Below are positions 17,533-31,800 of a stretch of DNA of 64,000 nt, one piece after another. The notes beneath the pieces are model-generated. The model was not told where the DNA came from. It saw only the letters and a program-made list of their open reading frames with translations, and ran no database searches. The first letter of the stretch is position 1. Each line of letters starts with the position of its first letter. Origin of the DNA: an uncultured Clostridia bacterium (GTDB lineage: Bacteria; Bacillota; Clostridia; Oscillospirales; Ruminococcaceae). Where the stretch lies: NCBI GenBank assembly GCA_944386045.1, contig CALWZO010000007.1, positions 1-64,000 on the forward strand, written 5' to 3'. The translations under genes and the position numbers were made by a program.

Positions 17533-20097
17533 TTATTGCAGAAAACTTCTGACAGCCTCTTCAACAGCTTCAACTTCTTCGGCAAAAGCAGATGCGGACA
17601 GCCTTAAGGCACCATGGCCCAGTATTATAATCTGCTCCAGGCCGTCGGATGTGGCCACTCTTACTTTGTAATTCTTTGCAATCTGTCGTGTGACCTTTTC
17701 AATGTACATATCGGCTGTTTCTGCTTCTTTTGTATATACTATTGTTATATTGTGATATTTGGATATTTCGCCCACATTACCTTTTACCTTATATGCGTCA
17801 AACACCAGGATTACTTCGCATTTCTGAAAACCCCGGTAGTTACACAGGATATTTGCCAGCTGATGCCTGGCCGCTTCGATATCTTCTGCGGCCGTTTTTT
17901 TCAGCCTGTCCCAGGCAAATATTATGTTATACCCGTCTACAAGCAAAAATTCTTTGTCAAATTTCTTCGCCTGCGTACGCTTTTCGGGCATTATTTTTTC
18001 TTTCGGAGCAGATTTAAGGGCAAGATATTTGTCGGTTTTTATTTTTCCGTAGGTCTGCTCGAATATTTTCAGCAGTTCTTTGTCGTCTTCCAGCGAAGAA
18101 TAATATCCGGCAACTTGTGAAGGGGTTATCCTGCGTACTTTCACGGCTTCCTCTTTTTTCTCCTTCAAAAACCGCGGCAGGTGCATTTTGTTTTTTACAT
18201 CATCCCACTTTACCACTATCCCTGCACCATGGGTGCAGAAAACCGAATCTGCTGTGTTTTCCGTATCGCTCCGCCGGTTATATCCGATATTTTCAATCAC
18301 CTGCCGGCTGTTGTGACAGGGCATATATCCTTTGAATTTCAGGGATATCCTGCCTTTACCTTTGGTAAAGCCCAAAAGCTCGGTATTATAGGAATTGATT
18401 TCGCTTACCGGCGCCTCTCCGCGCAGTATTGAATACATTTCGTTCTGTTCCGGCCGCCGGAAACTGCCGCTCATGCGCTGGATATCGGTTATAACCCTGC
18501 CGATACTTTCTGACGGCACCCAAATTTCAAAATCATACCATGGCTCCAGCAAAACGCTTTGCGCCTGCATAAGCCCGTTTCTGACAGCGCGGTAAGTGGC
18601 CTGTCTGAAATCTCCGCCTTCGGTGTGCTTTATGTGCGCACGCCCGTTTACAAGGGTAATTTTCATATCAGTTATGGGAGAACCTGTCAGGACGCCTATG
18701 TGAGTTTTTTCCGCAAGGTGTGTAAGTATAAGCCTTTGCCAGTTCCTGTCCAGTTTGTCCTCGCTGCACAGGCTTTCAAACACCAGACCCTGCCCCTGTT
18801 TCAGCGGCTCCATAAGCAGGTGGACCTCCGCGTAATGCCTCAGCGGCTCAAAATGGCCGACGCCTTCCACGGTATCGGTTATGGTTTCTTTGTACAGAAC
18901 ACTTCCGCTGTCAAAGTCCATATCTATTCCAAATCGGGAGAAAAACACCGATTTTATAACTTCCAGCTGTATTTCTCCCATAAGGCTGATGTGAATTTCC
19001 TTTTTTATCTCGTTCCAGCTTACATGAAGCTGCGGCTCTTCCTCTTCCAACTGTCGGAAAAAGCCCAGGACTGTGGGCGTGTCGTATTTTTTGTCAAATA
19101 TGGCCCTGTAATTGAATATGGCCTGCATCTGAAAGGCTTCATCGCTTTTTTCGCTGCCCAGTCCCTGCCCCGGATAAGTGTGTGTCAGTCCGGAAACCGC
19201 GCAGACTGTGCCGGCGCCGACAGTTGTTTCTGTTTTGAATTTTTCACCGGTGTATAGCCTGATGCTGTTTATCTTTTCTTTAAAAATGTCACCGCTTTTA
19301 TCTTTTTGGGAGATGGTGTCTTTTACTGACATGCTCCCGCCGGTAACTTTTAAAAATGTCAGCCTTTCATTTTTGTCATAAGTGATTTTAAAAACCTTGG
19401 CGCCAAATGTTTCGCTGTACTGTTTTTCCGATGTATATTTTGACAGGCAGTTCAAAAATTCCTCCGTGCCCTGCATTTTCAGTGCAGAGCCGAAAAAGCA
19501 AGGGAATATCTTTCGGGAAAATATTGCCCGGCTGACAACCTCATCAGAAATCCGGCCCTGTGATATATAGCTGTCCATAGCCTGTTCATCACGCAGGGCG
19601 ATCTCTTCCATCAGCTGCCGCTGCGGTATGTCAAAATTCACACAGTCCGCCGAAATCTCTTTTTTCAGCCGTTCAAAAACCCGCTGACCGTCAGATGTCG
19701 GCAGGTCCATTTTATTTATAAATATAAATGTAGGTATATTGTAGCTTTTCAGCAGATGCCAAAGGGTAAGAGTGTGGCTTTGCACACCTTCAGATGCTGA
19801 AACAAGCAGCACCGCACAGTCCAGCACCTGCAAGACCCTTTCCGCCTCCGGCGAGAAATCCACATGTCCCGGTGTGTCCAAAAGGTAAATCTGCATATCC
19901 TGCAGGTTCAGCACCGCCTGTTTGGAAAAGACCGTTATGCCCCTGCTGCGCTCTATTTCATTGGTGTCCAGCGTGCTGTCCCCGTGATCCACCCTCCCCG
20001 CCTTTCTTATGCTTCCGCAGGCATACAGCAGACTTTCTGAAAATGTGGTTTTTCCGCTGTCTACATGAGCCAGTATTCCCATTGTAAGTTTTTTCAT
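17533..20097 (-). CDS. TetM-like ribosomal GTPase fused to a YacP/Rae1-type NYN domain
   Basis: An 854-residue two-part protein. Residues 1 to ~680 are an EF-G/TetM-type GTPase: P-loop HVDSGKTT near residue 11, RGITV, DTPGHVDF at 74-81, NKMD at 128-131, and a domain IV resembling tetracycline ribosomal protection proteins. Residues ~712-854 are a complete NYN domain of the YacP type: LLVDGYNII, VFDAY, AETADMYIE and VATSDGLEQ hold the acidic metal-binding residues, then GALRLSA. YacP of Bacillus subtilis is Rae1, a ribosome-dependent mRNA endonuclease. A GTPase that enters the A site joined to an A-site nuclease suggests ribosome rescue or translation-linked mRNA cleavage. Whether it also protects from tetracycline cannot be judged. 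Confidence 0.85.
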   Translation of the reverse strand: MKKLTMGILAHVDSGKTTFSESLLYACGSIRKAGRVDHGDSTLDTNEIERSRGITVFSKQAVLNLQDMQIYLLDTPGHVDFSPEAERVLQVLDCAVLLVSASEGVQSHTLTLWHLLKSYNIPTFIFINKMDLPTSDGQRVFERLKKEISADCVNFDIPQRQLMEEIALRDEQAMDSYISQGRISDEVVSRAIFSRKIFPCFFGSALKMQGTEEFLNCLSKYTSEKQYSETFGAKVFKITYDKNERLTFLKVTGGSMSVKDTISQKDKSGDIFKEKINSIRLYTGEKFKTETTVGAGTVCAVSGLTHTYPGQGLGSEKSDEAFQMQAIFNYRAIFDKKYDTPTVLGFFRQLEEEEPQLHVSWNEIKKEIHISLMGEIQLEVIKSVFFSRFGIDMDFDSGSVLYKETITDTVEGVGHFEPLRHYAEVHLLMEPLKQGQGLVFESLCSEDKLDRNWQRLILTHLAEKTHIGVLTGSPITDMKITLVNGRAHIKHTEGGDFRQATYRAVRNGLMQAQSVLLEPWYDFEIWVPSESIGRVITDIQRMSGSFRRPEQNEMYSILRGEAPVSEINSYNTELLGFTKGKGRISLKFKGYMPCHNSRQVIENIGYNRRSDTENTADSVFCTHGAGIVVKWDDVKNKMHLPRFLKEKKEEAVKVRRITPSQVAGYYSSLEDDKELLKIFEQTYGKIKTDKYLALKSAPKEKIMPEKRTQAKKFDKEFLLVDGYNIIFAWDRLKKTAAEDIEAARHQLANILCNYRGFQKCEVILVFDAYKVKGNVGEISKYHNITIVYTKEAETADMYIEKVTRQIAKNYKVRVATSDGLEQIIILGHGALRLSASAFAEEVEAVEEAVRSFLQ

Positions 20098-21258: not shown

Positions 21259-22617
21259 ATGAAAAGAACTGTTGATTTGGGAAAAGATAATATTTTTTCA
21301 TTGGTATTGAAACTGGCACTGCCGTCGATGCTGGCGCAGTTTGTAAATGTTCTGTACAACATCGTGGACAGAATGTTTATCGGAAACATACCCAATATCG
21401 GAGATATTGCCCTGGCGGGCGTGGGTGTGTGCAGTCCTATTGTGACGATGCTGACATCTTTCGGCAGCCTGATAGGCGTCGGCGGAAGCGTATATATGGC
21501 CACAAAAATGGGACGGGGTGACATGCAGAAAGCAAAGGAAATTATGTACAATTCCTTTGTGGCTCTGCTGGGGTTGTCCTTTGTGCTGACAATTGTTTTC
21601 CTGTTTACAAAAGGCTATCTGCTGAATTGGTTCGGTGCCAGCAGTGAAACATTTGTTTATGCCAACCGGTATGTCACCATATACACTTTGGGTGCTGTCT
21701 TTGCCATATTCTCGCTGGGTATGAACTATTTCATCACCTGCCAGGGATTTGCAGGAACGGCGATGTTCAGCGTTGTTATCGGCGCACTGACAAACATAGT
21801 GCTGGATTATGTGTTTGTTTTCAAACTGGGTATGGAAGTGCCCGGTGCAGCGTGGGCCACTGTAATTTCGCAGATGTTGTCCTGCTGTTGGATAATGCGG
21901 TTTATATTTGGTAAAAAAATAAAGATAAAGGTGGAAAAACAGCCGATATCCGCCGCTGTTATTTCCAAAATATGCAAACTGGGTTTCTCTCCTTTTATTA
22001 TTCTGGCCACCGACAGTATAATTTTGATTATCCTGAACACTGTTTTGCAGTATCACGGCGGACGGGAGATGGGCGACAAGCTGATTTCCGCCGCAACGAT
22101 AGTCCAAAGCTATATGCTGATGATATCCGGCCCACTGATCGGTATAACCACCGGAACACAGGCTATCATAAGCTATAACTATGGCGCACAGAACAGAGAA
22201 AGAGTTATGACAGCAGTCAAACATATAATGACATTGGCGGTTTCTTTCTGCGCTGTGATGTTTGTAATTTCCAGGGTTGCGCCGCAGTATTTTGTACTGC
22301 TGTTCACTCAAAACGAACGGGCGGTGCGGCTGGCAAAATGGAGCATTCAGGCATATACCCTGGGTATAATAATAATGGCTTTGCAGTACGAGTCTGTAGA
22401 CGCACTGACAGCGCTGGGCAAAACAAAGGTTTCATTGTTTTTGTCATTATTCAGAAAGTTCACCTTTGTGGCAATGACACTGCTGCTGCCGATACTGTTC
22501 AACGCACAGGCGACATTCTACGCCGAAACAGTGGCCGACAGCGTGTGCGGCCTGCTCAGCTTCTATGTGTTTACGAATATTTTGAAAAGCCTGCATTTTT
22601 ACGAATATTCCAACTGA
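21259..22617 (+). CDS. MATE family multidrug/Na+ antiporter
   Basis: A 452-residue polytopic exporter with about twelve membrane helices in two repeats. The first helix region has LALPSMLAQFVNVLYNIVDRMFIG, the usual MATE opening, and the matching site in the second half is LGFSPFIILATDSIILIILN. MATE proteins expel cationic drugs or metabolites in exchange for Na+ or H+. I use the ATG at 21259, behind AAGAGG; a TTG six codons earlier overlaps that site. It lies between tRNA-Ala(CGC) and the CRISPR array and ends at a strong terminator. Confidence 0.9.
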   Translation: MKRTVDLGKDNIFSLVLKLALPSMLAQFVNVLYNIVDRMFIGNIPNIGDIALAGVGVCSPIVTMLTSFGSLIGVGGSVYMATKMGRGDMQKAKEIMYNSFVALLGLSFVLTIVFLFTKGYLLNWFGASSETFVYANRYVTIYTLGAVFAIFSLGMNYFITCQGFAGTAMFSVVIGALTNIVLDYVFVFKLGMEVPGAAWATVISQMLSCCWIMRFIFGKKIKIKVEKQPISAAVISKICKLGFSPFIILATDSIILIILNTVLQYHGGREMGDKLISAATIVQSYMLMISGPLIGITTGTQAIISYNYGAQNRERVMTAVKHIMTLAVSFCAVMFVISRVAPQYFVLLFTQNERAVRLAKWSIQAYTLGIIIMALQYESVDALTALGKTKVSLFLSLFRKFTFVAMTLLLPILFNAQATFYAETVADSVCGLLSFYVFTNILKSLHFYEYSN

Positions 22618-22620
22618 ATA

Positions 22621-22648
22621 AAAAAGCGCGGATTTCCGCGCATTTTTT
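22621..22648 (+). terminator. terminator of the MATE gene
   Basis: GCGCGGA and TCCGCGC flank a 2-base loop with an A run before and six T after. Confidence 0.9.
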
Positions 22649-22703
22649 ATTGACCTTATTTTATAAACAGTATATAATATATTCAAATAGAATATGGCTC
22701 TTA

Positions 22704-22736
22704 TTGGGTTCAATATTTATTTTTGTATAGTAGGGT
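22704..22736 (+). repeat. eroded CRISPR repeat remnant
   Basis: This stretch keeps TATTTATTTTTG-TATAGTA of the repeat with one base lost and the ends changed. Its end lies 135 bases before the end of the next degenerate repeat, close to two array units of 66. It marks the decayed old end of the array. Confidence 0.55.
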
Positions 22737-22834
22737 AAAAATTTAAGGAAAGGTGCTGTTGCAACAAACTGCTGATTTTAAAAATATGATATTTCTGCAT
22801 AGGTGAAAATCGCCGACAATTTTTTGCCGGCTTG

Positions 22835-25243
22835 GATTTTTATGCCTATTTATTTTTGGGTATAGTATAATCATAAAATGCTATATGTTCGCCATTATCA
22901 AGTTGTAGTTCCCTATTTATTTTTGGTATAGTATAATTATGTCGGCTCAGGGATATCTTTTTTAAGAGTTGTAGTTCCCTATTTATTTTTGGTATAGTAT
23001 AATTCGATAACTTCCCAGTTATCATAATTTACAGTTGTAGTTCCCTATTTATTTTTGGTATAGTATAATTCCGTCAAGTTTAAATCAACATGTTCGTCAG
23101 TTGTAGTTCCCTATTTATTTTTGGTATAGTATAATAATGAATATATCAGCAGACAAGCGGCTATTGTTGTAGTTCCCTATTTATTTTTGGTATAGTATAA
23201 TGCAACAACCGGCTGGCCGTCATATCTTGCAGTTGTAGTTCCCTATTTATTTTTGGTATAGTATAATGCTATCTTTGTTAATAGTGTAGATTTACCAGTT
23301 GTAGTTCCCTATTTATTTTTGGTATAGTATAATACCTTTTTACAAAGATACATATTATCTGTTGTTGTAGTTCCCTATTTATTTTTGGTATAGTATAATA
23401 GATTAAAATGATAATTAAAATATCTGCGCGTTGTAGTTCCCTATTTATTTTTGGTATAGTATAATTTTAAACTATTTTTCCCAATAATAGCAGGAGTTGT
23501 AGTTCCCTATTTATTTTTGGTATAGTATAATGGAGACGGAAGCGCCGAGGTAAAATAATCAGTTGTAGTTCCCTATTTATTTTTGGTATAGTATAATCGA
23601 AGGATTGGCGGATACGCTGCTATTTCGGTTGTAGTTCCCTATTTATTTTTGGTATAGTATAATAGCCCTCTATCCTGCCGGCATAGCCGTCAAGTTGTAG
23701 TTCCCTATTTATTTTTGGTATAGTATAATTTCCGTTCTTTCTTCCTGGTGCTTTTAAAAGTTGTAGTTCCCTATTTATTTTTGGTATAGTATAATTCCAT
23801 GTCGGTAATAGTTTCCAGGGCACTGTTGTAGTTCCCTATTTATTTTTGGTATAGTATAATTTGGAACAAAGACCGTGAAAATGTACAGCAGTTGTAGTTC
23901 CCTATTTATTTTTGGTATAGTATAATACATTAAACCAACGATTACCTGAAACAGTTGTTGTAGTTCCCTATTTATTTTTGGTATAGTATAATTTTTTCTT
24001 ACAATCATCATAAGAAAAACGAGTTGTAGTTCCCTATTTATTTTTGGTATAGTATAATGGGGGAAGTGCTTACGCAGCTAATAAGGAGGTTGTAGTTCCC
24101 TATTTATTTTTGGTATAGTATAATATTATATAGCGAACACCGTCAGGGGAAGGAGTTGTAGTTCCCTATTTATTTTTGGTATAGTATAATATTTGCAATT
24201 TGTTCCGTTCTTTCTTCCTGGTTGTAGTTCCCTATTTATTTTTGGTATAGTATAATACCGCATAAAAACGGTGCGATCCATTTTCAGTTGTAGTTCCCTA
24301 TTTATTTTTGGTATAGTATAATTGTTGACAAAAAAATTAGGGATTTGACGGAGTTGTAGTTCCCTATTTATTTTTGGTATAGTATAATAAAATAGAAGAC
24401 GATAAAACATCTTTAGTAGTTGTAGTTCCCTATTTATTTTTGGTATAGTATAATTAAATGGGATTTGATTATTGCTCATCCGCCGTTGTAGTTCCCTATT
24501 TATTTTTGGTATAGTATAATGCTATTTTGGTCAACAATGTTGATTTGCCGGTTGTAGTTCCCTATTTATTTTTGGTATAGTATAATTGTTGACAAAAAAA
24601 TTAGGGATTTGACTGAGTTGTAGTTCCCTATTTATTTTTGGTATAGTATAATAAAGATTAAAATAATTATCTAACATAAAATGTTGTAGTTCCCTATTTA
24701 TTTTTGGTATAGTATAATAAAAGTTGAAGAACTGAAATCAGATAAATCGTTGTAGTTCCCTATTTATTTTTGGTATAGTATAATAGTTTATCCTCATCAT
24801 CTATGTGCATTGCGGTTGTAGTTCCCTATTTATTTTTGGTATAGTATAATGCACTGTATATGTGCAAGACGACGACAAACGTTGTAGTTCCCTATTTATT
24901 TTTGGTATAGTATAATTCACGCAAAAAAGCAAGAGGTAAATATTAGTTGTAGTTCCCTATTTATTTTTGGTATAGTATAATCTCACGCAAAAAGGCAAGG
25001 GGTAAATACTAGTTGTAGTTCCCTATTTATTTTTGGTATAGTATAATTTTAAAACGAAAATACCCTTTTGTATTAGGTTGTAGTTCCCTATTTATTTTTG
25101 GTATAGTATAATGTCATTTTTCGGATACCCTCTTTATTTATTGTTGTAGTTCCCTATTTATTTTTGGTATAGTATAATCACTCTGATTCCATACTTTTCA
25201 AATATTTGTTGTAGTTCCCTATTTATTTTTGGTATAGTATAAT
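22835..25243 (+). CRISPR. type II-C CRISPR array, 36 perfect repeats plus one degenerate
   Basis: Thirty-six identical 36-bp repeats run from 22902-22937 to 25208-25243, beginning GTTGTAGTTCCC and ending TATAGTATAAT. One degenerate repeat (22835-22871) precedes them and has a changed 5' half and an extra G. There are 36 spacers, of 30 bases except five of 29 (at 23796, 24917, 25048 and 25179 among those checked, so count the 29-mers as at least four). The repeat starts like the crRNA-sense repeat of Neisseria II-C systems (GTTGTAGCTCCC), so crRNAs read on the + strand toward cas2. Every repeat ends in a perfect TATAAT, a possible internal -10 as in Neisseria and Campylobacter; the region 17 bases upstream is a poor -35. 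The anti-repeat at 29866-29901 confirms the strand. Confidence 0.97.
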
Positions 25244-25253
25244 AGGGTGCGGG

Positions 25254-25290
25254 AAAAGCCCTGAAAACAGTGCGTTTTCAGGGCTTTTTT
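25254..25290. terminator. bidirectional terminator between array and cas2
   Basis: A 15-bp perfect stem, AAAAGCCCTGAAAAC and its complement, has a 5-base loop and a T run on the + side. It begins 11 bases after the last repeat. It would end crRNA precursor transcripts coming from the left and the cas transcript coming from the right. Confidence 0.9.
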
Positions 25291-25301
25291 CCTGCAAAAA
25301 A

Positions 25302-25622
25302 TTATATGAATGTCAGCTGTTCGGCCTGGAAAGGTTTGTCGTTGTTTGTGGGTTTTCCCAGCAGTATGTGCATATTCTGATACTGCTTTTCTGTTATGGT
25401 CAGCAGACGCACCGAGCCGTTGGGCGGCAGGTTTTCTTTTATCCTTTTAAAATGCTTTTCAACGGCATCATTGCCGTTACACACCCTGGAATAAACCGAA
25501 AACTGCACCATATAGTATCCGTCTTTCAGCAAAAAGTTGCGGAAGCGTGTTGCGTTTTTCCTTTCGGATGCAGTGGTTACCGGCAGGTCAAAAAATACCA
25601 GCATACGCATAAATTTACTCAT
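25302..25622 (-). CDS. cas2: CRISPR-associated endonuclease Cas2
   Basis: A 106-residue Cas2 of the type II kind. MRMLVFFDLPV at the start gives the ferredoxin-fold strand with the conserved Asp12, followed by RNFLLKDGYYMVQFSVYSRVC. With Cas1 it forms the complex that inserts new spacers. It is the last gene of the cas9-cas1-cas2 operon and overlaps cas1 by 8 bases. It ends at the shared terminator next to the cas-proximal end of the array. No csn2 or cas4 follows, which sets the subtype as II-C. Confidence 0.95.
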   Translation of the reverse strand: MSKFMRMLVFFDLPVTTASERKNATRFRNFLLKDGYYMVQFSVYSRVCNGNDAVEKHFKRIKENLPPNGSVRLLTITEKQYQNMHILLGKPTNNDKPFQAEQLTFI

Positions 25623-26511
25623 ACCGGTGCTGCCGCAGTGCTGTCAGCCGGCACAACTCCACTACATTTTTACCGCCCATAAAGCTGGCCTGTACTGTCT
25701 GCACTGTCTTTTCAATGCCATAGGCCAGCGTATGCTTTTGTCCTTTGTACACCACATCACAGTTAAGCAGATTATACAATATCTGCTTGTCCCTTACCGA
25801 AAGGCTGTCGCTGTCTGTTTCTTCCATCTGATAAACACACAGGTCTACCACCGGGCGGAAAGGCTCCATAATATCGTCTGCCAGATTAAACCGGTTAAGC
25901 CGGCTGTGGTGATTTATTCCCAAAGCCGGTTCCAGCCCATAAGAGACCAGGCTGCGGCAGACCCGTCCCCTTACTATGGCATATCCGTAGTTCAGGCGGG
26001 CATTTACCGGCGTTTCTGCACTGCGGTTAAACCCCTGTCCAAACAGATATCGAAAATATTTTGATGCCGCCACTGCTTCGGCATTGTCACTGTCGCCGCT
26101 TTTCACCCTGCCGGACAATGAAATCAGCTCCCGTTCACCGGATAAACCAAGCAAAGAAAGTACCTTTGCCTGGTTTATTATTTTTTGTGCAACAATCTTT
26201 TGCCACATGGCTTTTTTCAACGGCTGTTTTGCAGACATCTGCGCTTGCAGAACACCGGCTTTTCGGCTGTGCACATTATAGCCCGTAAGTATTCCGTTGG
26301 GGGTGTGTTTTTCGTCGCAGAAATATACAGCCACACCCCATGCGGCACACGCAGACATAAGGGCGGCGGTGATGGTACACCGGCGGTTTTCCACCATCAG
26401 CGTGCTTATGTCTTCCAGCGGAAAAGTGTACTCGCCGCCGTTTACCACAAGCTGATTATTTTTCAACGACAATTTGGCAGAAGATGATATAAATATATTT
26501 CTGTATGCCAT
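25615..26511 (-). CDS. cas1: CRISPR-associated endonuclease Cas1
   Basis: A 298-residue type II Cas1 integrase. The catalytic set is visible: Glu145 in NAEAVAASKYF, the His pair in LGINHHSR near residues 201-202, and the acidic cluster NLADDIMEPFRP at 209-220. The LNYGYAIVRG motif is standard for type II Cas1. It cuts and joins prespacers at the repeat edges with Cas2. It starts 9 bases after the cas9 stop, so it shares the cas9 transcript. Confidence 0.96.
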   Translation of the reverse strand: MAYRNIFISSSAKLSLKNNQLVVNGGEYTFPLEDISTLMVENRRCTITAALMSACAAWGVAVYFCDEKHTPNGILTGYNVHSRKAGVLQAQMSAKQPLKKAMWQKIVAQKIINQAKVLSLLGLSGERELISLSGRVKSGDSDNAEAVAASKYFRYLFGQGFNRSAETPVNARLNYGYAIVRGRVCRSLVSYGLEPALGINHHSRLNRFNLADDIMEPFRPVVDLCVYQMEETDSDSLSVRDKQILYNLLNCDVVYKGQKHTLAYGIEKTVQTVQASFMGGKNVVELCRLTALRQHRYE

Positions 26512-26520
26512 ACAGCCACC

Positions 26521-29500
26521 TCATTTTCTGCGCTTTTCTTTCGGTGCCTTGTATATATTTCCCAGCACATCCACATGATATTTTTCAATGCTTTCCAGGG
26601 TTTTTATACCTAAGCTTTTTATTGTGTAACTTTTGTCATGCGTTATTATAGTTATGTTTCCACCAGCTGTGTCAGCTTTTATATAATATACAAGCTCTTC
26701 ATTACTGAAATATTTCTTCTCAATATCGGCTTTCTCTGATACCCTGCTAAAATTCATTCCTCTTTTGCTTTTTACCAACAAAAGATCATTTGGATATATG
26801 GAATACAGGAAATCTTCATCTTTCATATCTTTCCAATTATCATAATTTTTACCTTGCACGCAGGCTTTTACAGGCAGTTCGTCCTTTACCATATCCGATG
26901 CGTACACCGGGACAAAATAATAGCCGTCGCCCTCCACCTTGTACAGGTCTATCCTCAGCATACTTCCGTTGTCCGCAATGCCCATATCCAAAGCTACATT
27001 GACATTTGTAGGTTCATAGGTTTTGACTTTATTTACCTTCGGCCGCCGGCCGCCTTTTGGGGTGGGTTTATACACAAAGCCCTCCGGAAAAGCCTTTTTG
27101 CCGTTTCCGCCGGTCTGTACAAGCCTTTCTTTCAGCATTTCATACAGCAGTCTGTCGCTGTCCGGGTTATAATATTTGGATATTTCACCTTCTTTATCCA
27201 GTTTAAGATTTTGCAGCCGGGTCTTGGTGACTGCCACTTTTTTTCTCTTGCCGTCTTTGCAGATAAATCTTTCTGCTCTTACGGTTTCTTTATGTGCCTG
27301 CCCGGTTTTCTTTTTTCTTTCCATACGGGATACAAGCACCGGTTTGATTGACCGTATATCCAAATCCCGGTAGTTGGGCAAAACAATATCTTTCAGCAAA
27401 GCCTGTGGATCTTTGGAAGTCCTTATATCAATTTCTGTCCTGAAAGTATCCCACGGAGGCGGAAATTTTGCATCAATGACCTTTTGGTCGCGGTACATGT
27501 ATCTGGTTTCCATATATCTGGAATAATCCGTAACCTTTTTTATCATACCCTGGGAAATACAGCCTATGACAGCCGCATCCACTGCATGGTGCATATCGCC
27601 ATTGCCTCTGATTTTGCTTATACCCCATCTTTTGCGCATATAAGCCGTTACCGAGCCGTTGACGCATATCACCTTTTGCTTTCCGGTGTAGCTTTCATCA
27701 AATTCCAGGTTGTCCCTGATATAGTTTGACAAAAATCTGCTGATAAACTTTGTATCCTGCAAAGCCCTGGGTTTTAACCGGTTCATATCTTCTTCCGTCA
27801 GCTTTTCTTTCAGCAGTTTCAGCCTTTTGTTTCTGTTGCGGATAAATGTTTTTACAAGGCCTGTAAAATCTTCCTTGCTCTTTACATAATCCATGGGAAT
27901 ACGGTTGCCCTTTTCCCTGTTGGCATAAGCCATAACCAGCGCTTTGTTGTTGTAACTGTCATCAAAAGAAATGCTGTACGGGATTATATGGTCTATTTCA
28001 CAGTAACCGGGAGCAAACAGATTTTCGGCCTTAATAGGCGTATTGGTGTACAGGCATATTCCCTGCTGTTCCTGCCACAGGCGGTATTTGATTATATCCT
28101 GACCCGAAGGTTTAAGTATATGGAATGTGTTCTTTATTTCTTCATATACCTGTTGGTTATTTTTCCTGTTTTCTTCCTGCTGATTTTCAATCTGTTTTCT
28201 CTCGGAGAAATCTTTGGATAATTCCCTGGCGGTTTCTATGTTTATAACAGCCGGAGCGCGGTATTGTTTTACAATGGCATTGATAACTTTTATTGTCTGG
28301 TTTACTGCCCTTTTTACTACCGGGCTGGTGATTTCGTTGTTATCATCAGGCAGCTTTGGCAGATACCTTCTTTTGACCGCAGAGGAATGAGCCCTGAAAT
28401 CGTAGCCGGCCCGCCGGCAGGCTTCGTTGTAAATCATACCTTTTTCCATATAGGGGATTATTTTTTTCAAAGCTTTCAGGGAAATATGGCCGAACTTCGA
28501 AAAGTTTTTCATACCTCCTATGGCTTCCAGCTCCTGCCGGGTGAAGTCAAACTCCGAAAGGTACTCCAGCACTTTTTCGCTTGTTTTGTAATAGGTCAGG
28601 GCTGTACCTATGGTGTCTCTTTTTTCTGTCGTTACGCCAACAATATACCCTTTGTTTATCTTATCAAAAGCCTTTCTCATCTCGTGGTATGCCGGCATAC
28701 CGCGAAATACTGCTTTTTCTGTCTTTGCCTTATCCTCTTCAGGATAGTTAATCGCAGAGAAAAATTCTTCTTCGGCAAGATTTAACTCTTTTCTTATTCT
28801 TTCATAAGTAACCTTTTCACTTTTATGGCAAAGTGATATGATTTTCTCTCTTTCTTCCGAAGTAAGTGTTCTTTGACCATTTGCAGAATAAATCTTCAGG
28901 TTGTTTGTTTTCTGTAAAAGGTCAAAATATTCAAAGGAATAACAAGCCTTGGCAGCGCGTTTTTCCCCTTTTTCAAGGGTACATTCCCCAACCATATTTT
29001 CAATCTGATTTCCGCCGTAAGGGCTGGGAAATCCCGGGCCTTCATCAAAACTGCGCTGGGATGAAAAAATCTGTATATATTTTTCTTTCAGGCTGTCTGT
29101 GGAAATAATGCTGCCAAACTCTTTTTGCTTTTGGAAGATAATATTTATTTCTTCAAGTATCTGACTGCGCAAAAATGTATTGGAGTAATCCCCGCCTTTA
29201 TTCCTTTTGGCGGCAGAGTATTTTTCGTCCTTATACAACATCTGCCCTACTGTCAAGTAACCTTTTTCCGCCATATACCGGGCATTTTCGGCTGTTGCAG
29301 ACAAAAGTTTGCCCTCATCACTTTTGGCGTCTTCATTTTTCCTGTTGGATTTAAATCCTCTGCGCTGTGCCAGGTGTATCAACAACCTTGCCATCTCCTG
29401 CCTGTCCAGAAGTCTTTCCAGCGCTTCGCTTCTTATGCGGTATATATCCGTCAGCGGCACGCTGTTCTTTTGGCGGTCATAAAGCTTTTCCAGCTCTTCT

Positions 29501-29754
29501 TTAGAGATAACACCTTCCCGTTGTAAAAGGGATTTTATTCTGTGAAGTCTGTGTTTTCGCCTGCGGCCTGTTCTTCTGGCGCCTCTTGCCATTCTGCGTG
29601 GAGCAGCCAGTGATGCACCTGTCTTGGGCTGTTCTGCTGCATCAAAAACTCTTGCACCCAACGAAATAATCCTGTTCGGTTCTCCTGATATATCTGTATT
29701 AAGGACACACCATCCAACAGATGTAGTGCCGATATCCAAACCAAGTCTGTACAT
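26521..29754 (-). CDS. cas9: type II-C Cas9 endonuclease, 1077 residues
   Basis: RNA-guided double-strand DNA nuclease of compact II-C size. The domains in order: RuvC-I GLDIGTTSVGW with Asp7; Arg-rich bridge helix at 53-75; recognition lobe; RuvC-II INIETARE with Glu507; HNH with DHIIPYS (His589) and NREKGN (Asn612); RuvC-III HHAVDAAVIG with His723 and Asp726; then a C-terminal PAM-interacting region. All catalytic residues are present, so it should be active. The segment SRMERKKKTGQAHKET near 809-824 also fits II-C relatives. The ATG at 29754 follows GAGGAAAAG; a longer reading by 14 residues lacks a ribosome site. The PAM is unknown. Confidence 0.97.
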   Translation of the reverse strand: MYRLGLDIGTTSVGWCVLNTDISGEPNRIISLGARVFDAAEQPKTGASLAAPRRMARGARRTGRRRKHRLHRIKSLLQREGVISKEELEKLYDRQKNSVPLTDIYRIRSEALERLLDRQEMARLLIHLAQRRGFKSNRKNEDAKSDEGKLLSATAENARYMAEKGYLTVGQMLYKDEKYSAAKRNKGGDYSNTFLRSQILEEINIIFQKQKEFGSIISTDSLKEKYIQIFSSQRSFDEGPGFPSPYGGNQIENMVGECTLEKGEKRAAKACYSFEYFDLLQKTNNLKIYSANGQRTLTSEEREKIISLCHKSEKVTYERIRKELNLAEEEFFSAINYPEEDKAKTEKAVFRGMPAYHEMRKAFDKINKGYIVGVTTEKRDTIGTALTYYKTSEKVLEYLSEFDFTRQELEAIGGMKNFSKFGHISLKALKKIIPYMEKGMIYNEACRRAGYDFRAHSSAVKRRYLPKLPDDNNEITSPVVKRAVNQTIKVINAIVKQYRAPAVINIETARELSKDFSERKQIENQQEENRKNNQQVYEEIKNTFHILKPSGQDIIKYRLWQEQQGICLYTNTPIKAENLFAPGYCEIDHIIPYSISFDDSYNNKALVMAYANREKGNRIPMDYVKSKEDFTGLVKTFIRNRNKRLKLLKEKLTEEDMNRLKPRALQDTKFISRFLSNYIRDNLEFDESYTGKQKVICVNGSVTAYMRKRWGISKIRGNGDMHHAVDAAVIGCISQGMIKKVTDYSRYMETRYMYRDQKVIDAKFPPPWDTFRTEIDIRTSKDPQALLKDIVLPNYRDLDIRSIKPVLVSRMERKKKTGQAHKETVRAERFICKDGKRKKVAVTKTRLQNLKLDKEGEISKYYNPDSDRLLYEMLKERLVQTGGNGKKAFPEGFVYKPTPKGGRRPKVNKVKTYEPTNVNVALDMGIADNGSMLRIDLYKVEGDGYYFVPVYASDMVKDELPVKACVQGKNYDNWKDMKDEDFLYSIYPNDLLLVKSKRGMNFSRVSEKADIEKKYFSNEELVYYIKADTAGGNITIITHDKSYTIKSLGIKTLESIEKYHVDVLGNIYKAPKEKRRK

Positions 29755-29802
29755 ACTTTTCCTCGTTTCTTTCTGGATTTTGTGACAAGTTTTCATATAT
29801 AA

Positions 29803-29903
29803 GAAAAAGTGTCGTGACTAGCACGACACCTTTCACTTGCGGCTCAATGCTTTCGCAAAGGCCTTATTGTAGTAACCTATTTACTTTTGGTATAGTATAA
29901 GGT
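29803..29903 (-). ncRNA. tracrRNA
   Basis: The anti-repeat at 29866-29901 matches the CRISPR repeat at 31 of 36 positions, on the opposite transcribed strand. Reading leftward it is followed by GCGAAAGC, a small tetraloop hairpin, then a tail with GAGCCGCAAGTG and a final 8-bp terminator hairpin (GTGTCGTG, 29809-29829) with T run. A near-consensus promoter ends 7 bases before the anti-repeat, so the RNA is about 100 bases and starts at the anti-repeat itself. It pairs with crRNA for RNase III processing and Cas9 loading. Confidence 0.92.
29809..29829 (-). terminator. tracrRNA terminator hairpin
   Basis: GTGTCGTG and CACGACAC flank a 5-base loop; the leftward reading ends in TTTTTC. It lies 55 bases before the cas9 start, so cas9 may depend on readthrough. 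Confidence 0.85.
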
Positions 29904-29909
29904 AAATTT

Positions 29910-29938
29910 ATTGTAACATCAATGTTTTGTTTTGTCAA
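29910..29938 (-). promoter_or_regulatory. tracrRNA promoter
   Basis: Leftward TTGACA (29938-29933), 17 bases, TACAAT (29915-29910). Start expected near 29903. Confidence 0.85.
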
Positions 29939-29941
29939 ATA

Positions 29942-29968
29942 AAAAAGACCGTTTTCCAACGGTCTTTT
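29942..29968 (-). terminator. terminator of tRNA-Ala(GGC)
   Basis: AAAAGACCGTT and its complement form a stem just past the tRNA 3' end, and the leftward reading runs into six T. It also separates the tRNA from the tracrRNA promoter, which overlaps its far edge. Confidence 0.85.
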
Positions 29969-30044
<76 letters not shown>

Positions 30045-30066
30045 GTATTCAGCTGACTGCTTAAAT

Positions 30067-30095
30067 ATAATAACAAATTTTTCCGTGTTTGTCAA
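30067..30095 (-). promoter_or_regulatory. promoter of tRNA-Ala(GGC)
   Basis: Leftward TTGACA (30095-30090), 17 bases, TATTAT (30072-30067). Confidence 0.75.
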
Positions 30096-30257
30096 CAGAA
30101 ATTTTCAATTTTTTTGTAAAATTACAAAATTATTTTGTTCCCCTTTCACAAATCAGTGTACCAAAAATTGTGCATATTATATAATAAAATTATATTTAAA
30201 TTTTCTTAATTAAAATTATTTTTATTCATTTTTATTTAAGATTATAAATAATTATAC

Positions 30258-30286
30258 TTGAAAATATGAACAAAGAGTGTTATATT
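30258..30286 (+). promoter_or_regulatory. promoter of the C69 dipeptidase gene
   Basis: TTGAAA (30258-30263), 17 bases, TATATT (30281-30286). The rest of the 280-base gap between the tRNA and the peptidase is AT-rich with nothing else I can support. Confidence 0.6.
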
Positions 30287-30324
30287 AGTTTTAAAGAAAC
30301 TTTGGTAAAACCATGGAGGTACTT

Positions 30325-31800
30325 ATGAAAAAAGAATATTTTGTTGACAGAATAGCTGATGAAAGCAATTGCAGCACGGTTATAATAGGTAAAGACGCTT
30401 CTGTAACCGGCAAGGTTATCTTGGGTCATAACGAGGATGACCCGAATGCTGTTGTTCAGCTGCATATAGTACCGCGTGTAAAACATAAAGAAGGCGAAAC
30501 AATTTCTTTTGCGGACGGCAGCGCTGTTATACCGCAGGTGGAAGAAACATATTCCTATTACTGGTCAGAAGTTAGATGCAAAGGCGGTATCTCCTTTGCT
30601 GACGGCTTTGTAAACGAATGGGGTGTGGCAGTTGTCAGCAACGCCTGCCGCCCAAGTAAGGTTAAAGAAGGCGATGATTCCGGCATCGGTTACGCTTTGC
30701 GCAGGCTGATAGCTGAAAGAGCCAGAACAGCCAGAGAAGGTGTAGAAGTAGCCGCCGGACTTGTGGAAAAATTCGGATATTTTTCCGCCCGCACATACTC
30801 CATTGTTGACAAAAACGAAGCATGGGTGTTCCAGGTGCCTACCGGCAAAAATTATGTGGCCAGAAAAGTGGGCGATGATGAAATCTTCTACATTCCCAAC
30901 TGGTTTACAGTTCACCAGGTAGATTTTTCCGACACAGAACATAAAAAATTCTATTTTTCAAAGGACCTTGCAAAATTTGCCGAGGAAAACGGCTGGTATA
31001 CTCCAAAAGTTGCCGGAGATTATTCTGATTTTGATTTTGCAGCAGCCTATCAGGACGGCGAAATGGCAGAATACAACATACTCCGCGCCAGAAACGCATG
31101 GAGAATTCTGACAGGTGTCAAACCTGAAAATGACCGGCTGAAACCTTTCAGCAAAAAAGCCGAAAGAAAATATTCAGCTGATGACATCAAAAAAGTTTTG
31201 CGTTCACATTATGAGGGTACTGAAGACGATCAGACCGAAAACTACACCCGCAATCCTCACAGAGTCGGTGTTTCTTCCCTGTGCAACGATACGACAATAG
31301 AAAGTTCTATCATCGAATTCAACGAGGATATTTACCTTACAAGACTGCTGCGCGCCAGCCAGAAACCCTGTATAACACCCTACACTCCCTGGTATCCGGT
31401 GGCTTTGACAAAAATTCCTGACGGCTACAGCGCCATGGGTTATCTGCCTGCGCAGGTATCACATTTTTATGTGGATGACAGCGAGCTGGAATATGACCCT
31501 GCCAAAGCCTGGTGGGCATTCAGGACTCTGCAATACTTTACAGAATTCAATTACAGGGATACACATGAAGTCCTGGCACAGGAGGCCCGGACTATGGAAA
31601 AAGACTGGGAGGCAGAAAAAGCCGGTATTGAAAAGGCATATACCGAACTTAAAGAAACAAGCCTCTCTGCCGCCCGCGAATATCTTACTGCTTATACTGC
31701 GGCTCAGGCCAAAAAGTCATGGAACTGGGCAAACAAAATGATACATAAACTGGGCGAAGAAAAAATTCTTTCCAACTGCAAGGAATGGGAAAACAAATAA
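30325..31800 (+). CDS. C69 family dipeptidase (PepD-like)
   Basis: Ntn-hydrolase dipeptidase of 491 residues. In this family a short propeptide is removed so that a Cys becomes the N-terminal nucleophile; the candidate is Cys16 in SNCSTVIIGKDAS. GHNEDDPNA follows at once, as in relatives. Other family features are WGVAVVSNAC, the RTYSIVDKNEAWVFQV stretch and the late KAWWAFRTLQYF. It splits dipeptides in the cytoplasm. I use the ATG at 30325 behind GGAGG; the ATG at 30313 contains that site. Single gene with its own promoter and terminator. Confidence 0.9.
   Translation: MKKEYFVDRIADESNCSTVIIGKDASVTGKVILGHNEDDPNAVVQLHIVPRVKHKEGETISFADGSAVIPQVEETYSYYWSEVRCKGGISFADGFVNEWGVAVVSNACRPSKVKEGDDSGIGYALRRLIAERARTAREGVEVAAGLVEKFGYFSARTYSIVDKNEAWVFQVPTGKNYVARKVGDDEIFYIPNWFTVHQVDFSDTEHKKFYFSKDLAKFAEENGWYTPKVAGDYSDFDFAAAYQDGEMAEYNILRARNAWRILTGVKPENDRLKPFSKKAERKYSADDIKKVLRSHYEGTEDDQTENYTRNPHRVGVSSLCNDTTIESSIIEFNEDIYLTRLLRASQKPCITPYTPWYPVALTKIPDGYSAMGYLPAQVSHFYVDDSELEYDPAKAWWAFRTLQYFTEFNYRDTHEVLAQEARTMEKDWEAEKAGIEKAYTELKETSLSAAREYLTAYTAAQAKKSWNWANKMIHKLGEEKILSNCKEWENK

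What the first reader, a model, noticed from the sequence alone, without database searches (positions are those of the whole stretch)
22835..25290. CRISPR array appears to be transcribed from its old end toward cas2
The crRNA strand, fixed by the repeat's likeness to Neisseria II-C repeats and by the anti-repeat, runs left to right. The left end is the decayed one (a degenerate repeat at 22835-22871 and an older remnant at 22704-22736), while the repeat nearest cas2 is perfect and a strong terminator starts 11 bases later. New spacers therefore probably enter at the right, so transcription enters from the trailer side, opposite to the textbook leader layout. Repeat-borne promoters are known in Neisseria and Campylobacter II-C systems, and every repeat here ends in TATAAT. 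The poor -35 (TTCCCT) is a caveat.
Basis: partly seen in the sequence, partly recalled or inferred. Interest (0 to 1): 0.75.

Follow-up and report, generated by a model that had tools for sequence, protein, structure and literature searches.

The report
Ordinary type II-C CRISPR array layout
This is a bacterial CRISPR-Cas9 immune memory whose RNA guides are probably read from the oldest entry toward the newest, next to the cas genes; this looks backwards beside the textbook picture but is the published usual layout for this subtype.

Summary
A cas9-cas1-cas2 operon lies on the - strand and an array on the + strand: 36 identical 36-nt repeats, with one degenerate repeat and one older remnant at the left end. 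tracrRNA direction fixes the crRNA strand as left to right, toward cas2. In 20 arrays of this kind (the window's and 19 from other genomes) cas and array converge in 20 of 20. A degenerate repeat lies at the cas2-distal end in 11 of 16, at the cas2 end in 0 of 20; 15 II-A-like control arrays are the mirror image. An extended -10 element is in 17 of 20 repeats (0.13 expected; II-A 0 of 15). Degenerate repeats lose the tracr-pairing half (100 changes) and keep the promoter half (11). Least expected: a strong hairpin starts 0-13 nt after the last repeat in 16 of 20 arrays, perhaps insulating the cas operon. One spacer matches the genome's own gyrA. Transcription and acquisition themselves could not be tested here.

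The parts
22650..22678 (+). possible external promoter TTGACC-17-TATAAT reading toward the array
   Evidence: 11 of 12 matches
22708..22733 (+). older repeat remnant; TATAAT lost
   Evidence: local score 19, 0 of 2000 shuffles as high
22806..22840 (+). weak hairpin followed by a T run, overlapping the start of the degenerate repeat; terminator-like, also covers the guide of the would-be extraneous crRNA
   Evidence: fold, -10.1 kcal/mol, not tested against shuffles; one search lists a 5-pair site at 22802-22814
22835..22871 (+). degenerate extra (oldest) repeat: 5' half decayed, 3' TATAGTATAAT kept, one inserted G
   Evidence: weaker predicted tracrRNA pairing, -30.7 against -43.4 kcal/mol
22872..22901 (+). 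oldest spacer
22902..25243 (+). 36 identical 36-nt repeats with 35 spacers of 29-30 nt; each repeat ends TGGTATAGTATAAT
23796..23824 (+). spacer 14, identical to the genome's own gyrA (29 of 29)
25244..25247 (+). junction AGGG next to the newest repeat; first base A in 16 of 20 arrays, second G in 11 of 20
25248..25296 (.). strong hairpin with A and T tracts, likely two-way terminator between array and cas2
   Evidence: termination itself not tested
25302..25622 (-). cas2
   Evidence: TIGR01573, 94.3 bits, cut-off 24.5
25615..26511 (-). cas1 of the type II (NMENI) kind
   Evidence: TIGR03639, 295.9 bits, cut-off 120
26521..29796 (-). cas9, 1091 aa as listed; the real start may be the internal Met 15 (inference)
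   Evidence: TIGR01865, 794.4 bits, cut-off 100
29802..29903 (-). tracrRNA: anti-repeat followed by a terminator-like stem and T run; ends approximate
   Evidence: sequence; duplex with the repeat -43.4 kcal/mol
29910..29938 (-). tracrRNA promoter TTGACA-17-TACAAT
   Evidence: sequence, read by eye

Best explanation
A type II-C CRISPR-Cas9 locus of an Oscillospiraceae-like clostridium. [quoted passage not shown] New spacers enter at the cas2 end, next to a short AG-type junction and a hairpin. The outermost left repeat has lost its tracr-pairing half but keeps the half that would drive the first spacer. The hairpin after the last repeat probably ends both the cas mRNA and transcripts from the array, including those from the promoter of the spacer-less last repeat. 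Shown: anatomy, strand, conservation, decay polarity. Inferred: promoter activity, insertion at the cas2 end, termination.
For: tracrRNA has its own promoter-like and terminator-like signals on the - strand, so its partner is the + strand repeat. cas9, cas1 and cas2 converge with the array in 20 of 20. Degenerate repeat on the cas2-distal side in 11 of 16 arrays whose left flank is on the contig, on the cas2 side in 0 of 20; first full repeat mutated in 6 of 20, last in 0 of 20. II-A-like controls are mirrored: degenerate copy at 3' in 4 of 13, at 5' in 0 of 15; last full repeat mutated in 8 of 15, first in 0 of 15. Extended -10 with at most one mismatch in 17 of 20 repeats, 13 exact, 0.13 expected from shuffles, 0 of 15 II-A. 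Changes in the 11 degenerate repeats: 100 in the 5' half, 11 in the 3' half. Published RNA or acquisition data in other II-C systems: PMC3656092, PMC7038990, PMC6008519, PMC4283603 (passages).
Against: No RNA data and no strain comparison for this organism. The window's repeat has no TG in front of the final TATAAT; its same-genus relative L022 ends TATAGG, so the terminal hexamer is not conserved even in the genus; L088, L100 and L101 have no extended -10 by my rule, which I set after seeing the repeats. The repeat's 3' end also pairs with tracrRNA, which could conserve it. The -35 is poor in every array (best 4 of 6). Spacers show no purine bias at the predicted start (302 II-C against 209 II-A spacers). 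An external promoter lies upstream. Retention of the inner half may be erosion from outside: 3 of 4 II-A degenerate copies also keep theirs. 5 of 16 arrays show no counted degenerate copy on the left (L078, L090, L092, L096, L101). The Riemerella authors found no promoters in their II-C repeats and placed a promoter-bearing leader at the cas2 end (PMC5006608), so II-C is not uniform.
Confidence: 0.85

Rival explanations
1. One external promoter at 22650-22678 makes a long precursor from the left; the repeat -10 elements are by-products of tracrRNA pairing and are not used.
For: TTGACC-17-TATAAT, 11 of 12, in the right direction; in C. jejuni PT14 a putative leader -10 upstream of the array is described (PMC4283603 passage).
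Against: A weak hairpin and T run lie between it and the array; extended -10 in 17 of 20 related repeats; promoter half kept in degenerate repeats, of which the window's pairs less well with tracrRNA.
Confidence: 0.12
2. Standard layout: leader with promoter at the cas2 end, array transcribed right to left.
For: The cas2-end flank is conserved at the repeat junction; Riemerella and Prevotella authors placed the leader there (passages).
Against: tracrRNA direction requires the + strand crRNA; the flank between the array and cas2 holds a terminator-like hairpin, and the only promoter-like match reading left from it has 9 of 12, a score common in the scan.
Confidence: 0.02
3. New spacers enter at the left; the left repeat is degenerate for another reason.
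For: None found; strain data absent.
Against: Decay at the left in 11 of 16 and at the right in 0 of 20, mirrored in II-A; experimental cas2-end insertion in Riemerella (PMC6008519 passages).
Confidence: 0.03
4. The intact inner half of the degenerate repeats reflects erosion or deletion from outside, not selection for a promoter.
For: 3 of 4 II-A degenerate copies also lose the outer half (L086 is even); four II-C 5' halves (L074, L091, L094, L100) match in only 4-6 of 18, as after a deletion.
Against: In type II the upstream repeat is not part of the mature crRNA (general knowledge), so without a promoter role little should keep it; positions 22-30 carry 1 change in 11 repeats.
Confidence: 0.3

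Closest known systems
Clostridium cellulolyticum H10 II-C (CcCas9), PMC7038990
   Different: L096 Cas9 39% identical over window residues 15-789; the window has 36 intact repeats and TAG before its final TATAAT
Campylobacter jejuni II-C, PMC3656092 and PMC12080349
   Same: repeat ends in a -10 element, transcription starts inside each spacer, mutated extra repeat, hairpin/terminator upstream of it
   Different: the window's repeat ends TATAAT, the C. jejuni repeat GGTAAAAT; transcription not measured here
Neisseria meningitidis II-C (Zhang 2013; paper not held; known as cited in papers seen, and recalled)
   Same: promoter in each repeat; similar repeat start (recalled)
   Different: not compared with a tool
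Riemerella anatipestifer and Prevotella intermedia II-C, PMC6008519, PMC5006608, PMC5608340 (passages)
   Same: cas2-end insertion (Riemerella, shown); palindrome between cas2 and the array
   Different: 47-nt repeats; no repeat promoters found by the Riemerella authors; palindrome not read as a terminator in the passages seen

Membership tests
type II-C CRISPR-Cas | cas9, cas1, cas2 and no csn2 or cas4 beside them | tested here: met
   names the three genes; the ORF list shows no room for a fourth cas gene between array, cas genes and tracrRNA; neighbours further out were not searched
type II-C CRISPR-Cas | Cas9 phylogeny within II-C | not tested
   no tree built; the PADLOC and NCBIfam models hit do not separate the subtypes
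type II-C CRISPR-Cas | tracrRNA with anti-repeat pairing to the repeat | tested here: met
   (sequence and predicted duplex)
[quoted passage not shown]
   sequence only: TGG-TATAGT plus terminal TATAAT; extended -10 in 17 of 20 arrays
type II-C CRISPR-Cas | crRNA starts inside each spacer in vivo | not testable with these tools
   no RNA data
type II-C CRISPR-Cas | new spacers enter at the 3', cas2-proximal end | tested here: inconclusive
   decay polarity supports it; no strain variants available
type II-C CRISPR-Cas | mutated extra repeat at the 5' end | tested here: met
type II-A CRISPR-Cas | array on the cas strand, decayed repeat at the crRNA 3' end | tested here: not met
   against 15 II-A-like arrays

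The most novel reading that the evidence does not exclude
The acquisition end of these II-C arrays is built around a terminator fixed to the last repeat. Because the repeats carry promoters and the array grows toward the cas operon, the newest, spacer-less repeat always fires at cas2; a hairpin held 0-13 nt away stops that antisense transcript, stays in place at every insertion, and so allows promoter-bearing repeats to coexist with growth toward convergent cas genes. The leader of such II-C systems would then be an insulator rather than a promoter.
Probability: 0.4. Interest if true: 0.5.

Novelty: new member of a known kind. Interest (0 to 1): 0.3.

Why it matters
It documents the II-C layout in a set of Firmicutes arrays with a II-A-like control set. 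PMC12638026 left open whether II-C arrays form subgroups with different acquisition ends; in this set decay is seen only on the cas2-distal side (none of 20 at the cas2 end). The conserved hairpin beside the newest repeat suggests a concrete, testable role for the II-C leader.

Tried and rejected
Protospacers and PAM: 4 viral-contig scans with spacer patterns. Two found nothing; the 18-base pattern found one contig whose flanks do not match the spacers; the degenerate pattern for spacers 6/25 gave 26 contigs, not examined. A fifth scan with the whole repeat found nothing. blastn of the array against phages gave 112 records; 40 were listed, mostly weak, and none was followed. PAM stays unknown. 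Own-genome matches: only spacer 14 among 36 (whole array from the first spacer, two large parts).

Transcription start signal in spacers: no purine preference near positions 5-8; negative.

Rfam: only a tRNA at gathering thresholds in 22500-30400.

Rows dropped. Of 12 Cas9 hits, G183 has no array on its contig, and G035, G142, G158, G189, G212 (30-31% identity) had no array in the 5-kb loci seen and were not pursued. Of 25 Cas1 hits, G628 (below the cut-off) was not fetched; L076, L082, L087 had no array by my finder. Of 10 loci, L099 had none. G053 has a further truncated array of this kind, not counted. L101 was not counted as having a degenerate left copy although its p (0.0067) equals that of L094, which was counted: its match is scattered (11 and 8 of 18) and off the usual spacing (-63), and its first full repeat already has 3 changes. 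With it the count is 12 of 16 and the changes 107 against 21. II-A was assigned by repeat type and layout, not by csn2. The 20 arrays are not fully independent (L089 and L091 share a genus; L096 and L097 are alike). Four arrays (L022, L088, L093, L097) start at a contig end.

My terminator script allowed loops up to 14 nt and so missed the L074 hairpin; the fold-based test is the cleaner one. By that fold test only 8 of 20 have a stem of 10 or more pairs with 5 or more T in the 10 bases around the stem end, because the outer pairs often extend past the T run; the scan, which asks for the T run, finds 15 of 20. L079, L080, L093 and L098 have no significant hairpin close to the repeat.

Full report
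What is there. The window (contig 7 of a 1.8-Mb, 53-contig genome) carries cas9 (26521-29796), cas1 (25615-26511) and cas2 (25302-25622), all on the - strand and named by NCBIfam models above their cut-offs. Left of cas2 stands an array of 36 identical 36-nt repeats, 22902-25243, with 29-30 nt spacers. One degenerate repeat (22835-22871) and a remnant (22708-22733) lie further left. The only named relative found, 94% identical in Cas9, is an uncultured Oscillospiraceae bacterium.

crRNA strand. Upstream of cas9, on the - strand, TTGACA-17-TACAAT is followed by an anti-repeat and then by a terminator-like stem with a T run (read by eye). The anti-repeat pairs with the + strand repeat at -43.4 kcal/mol. 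So the tracrRNA is on the - strand and the crRNA on the + strand, left to right, without appeal to Neisseria.

Polarity. I gathered 20 arrays of this kind: the window's, plus relatives found with its Cas9 (family, class and phylum samples) and with the type II cas1 model (order sample). Rows dropped are listed under Tried and rejected. cas9, cas1 and cas2 converge with the array in 20 of 20. The cas2-distal side carries a degenerate repeat in 11 of the 16 arrays whose left flank is on the contig (12 if the borderline L101 is counted); the cas2 side carries none in 20. The first full repeat is mutated in 6 of 20, the last in 0 of 20. Fifteen II-A-like arrays from the same order are the mirror image: degenerate copy at the crRNA 3' end in 4 of 13, at the 5' end in 0 of 15; last full repeat mutated in 8 of 15, first in 0 of 15. 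New spacers therefore most likely enter next to cas2.

Promoters in repeats. The extended -10 rule (TGn plus TATAAT with at most one mismatch, A2 and T6 kept, near the repeat end; set after seeing the repeats) is met by 17 of 20 II-C repeats, 13 exactly; shuffles give 0.13 and the 15 II-A repeats none. In the window the TG-bearing element is TGG-TATAGT, 5 nt upstream of the terminal TATAAT, so two overlapping start registers are possible. L022 in the same genus has lost the terminal TATAAT but keeps TGG-TATAGT; L088, L100 and L101 fail the rule. The -35 is poor throughout. The repeat's 3' end also pairs with tracrRNA, so its conservation alone does not prove a promoter.

A natural test of the promoter. 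The 11 degenerate repeats carry 100 changes in the 5' half and 11 in the 3' half. In the window the predicted tracrRNA pairing of the first 19 nt falls from -19.4 to -10.5 kcal/mol while TATAGTATAAT stays. The remnant further out has lost TATAAT. This fits PMC12080349 (abstract, introduction, results and discussion read), which found the extra repeat mutated mainly in its first 15 nt and suggested that it must keep its promoter. Erosion from outside remains a rival, since 3 of 4 II-A degenerate copies also keep their inner half.

The three published ways of silencing the extraneous crRNA all seem present at the left end: a mutated repeat, a weak terminator-like hairpin, and pairing within the would-be guide. 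The hairpin was not tested against shuffles, so this is suggestive only.

The cas2 end. The 60 nt after the last repeat fold with a mean z of -5.1 (16 of 20 below -2; in all 16 the main stem starts 0-13 nt after the repeat). The 60 nt before the first full repeat of the same arrays give 0.0 (0 of 16 below -2), II-A 3' flanks -0.9 (2 of 14) and II-A 5' flanks -0.4 (0 of 15). By the looser measure, a main stem of 10 or more pairs (bulges allowed) starting within 13 nt, the counts are 17 of 20 against 3 of 16, 4 of 14 and 4 of 15. A separate terminator scan finds 15 of 20 against 1.5 expected from shuffles, 13 of them starting 6-13 nt after the repeat. The cas2 stop lies 58-151 nt away in the 19 arrays where that script found it, so the hairpin keeps to the repeat rather than to cas2. 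Its sequence varies while the structure stays. Palindromes between cas2 and the array have been reported for Riemerella (PMC5006608) and Prevotella (PMC5608340) as leader features (passages). I saw no reading of them as terminators for the repeat promoters; the searches behind that were made, in an open-licence library only.

Comparison with print. PMC12638026 (passages) states that II-C arrays acquire at the 3' end and carry promoters in the repeats, and suggests there may be subgroups with different acquisition ends. PMC3656092 (passages) mapped starts inside C. jejuni spacers. PMC6008519 (passages) showed insertion between cas2 and the adjacent repeat. PMC4283603 (passages) saw a new spacer at the distal end. 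PMC7038990 (abstract and passages) sequenced small RNAs of a clostridial II-C locus cloned in E. coli and found the array transcribed opposite to cas. PMC10281378 (passages) inferred the array direction of another II-C locus from its tracrRNA in the same way. Against uniformity, the Riemerella authors found no promoters in their repeats (PMC5006608). The finding is therefore a sound observation of a known layout.

Noticed in passing
window 23796-23824 and G000:C1:11798-11826 (L125:8799-8827): Spacer 14 (29 nt) is identical to the coding strand of the genome's own gyrA (named by NCBIfam): a self-targeting spacer in a gene that is normally essential, kept while 21 further spacers were added if growth is at the right. 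3' flank GCCGGATG; PAM unknown.
   Followed up: partly
window 22902-25243: Related spacers, read by eye: 22 and 26 differ by one base; 31 and 32 by three bases with a one-base shift; 13 and 20 overlap by 18 bases; 6 and 25 would encode nearly the same ten residues. The host seems to have met variants of the same invaders repeatedly.
   Followed up: partly
window 22650-22678: Sigma-70-like promoter (11 of 12) just upstream of the array remnant, reading toward the array.
   Followed up: partly
L022 (G242): Same-genus array whose repeats end TATAGG instead of TATAAT but keep TGG-TATAGT: the promoter register may have moved by 5 nt within the genus.
   Followed up: partly
L126:4638-4858 (G053:C4 end): A further truncated array with repeats ending TGGTATAAT and changes in the start of its first two repeats; that genome is not among the 12 with a Cas9 hit.
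   Followed up: no
window 17533-20097 (- strand): EF-G-like protein nearest to the tetracycline ribosomal-protection family but well below its cut-off (399.9 against 775 bits), with a C-terminal YacP-like NYN domain. An unusual-looking fusion; no resistance claim.
   Followed up: partly
window 29910-30044 (- strand): The tracrRNA promoter lies directly behind a tRNA-Ala (GGC) gene, with the cas9 start close behind the tracrRNA.
   Followed up: no
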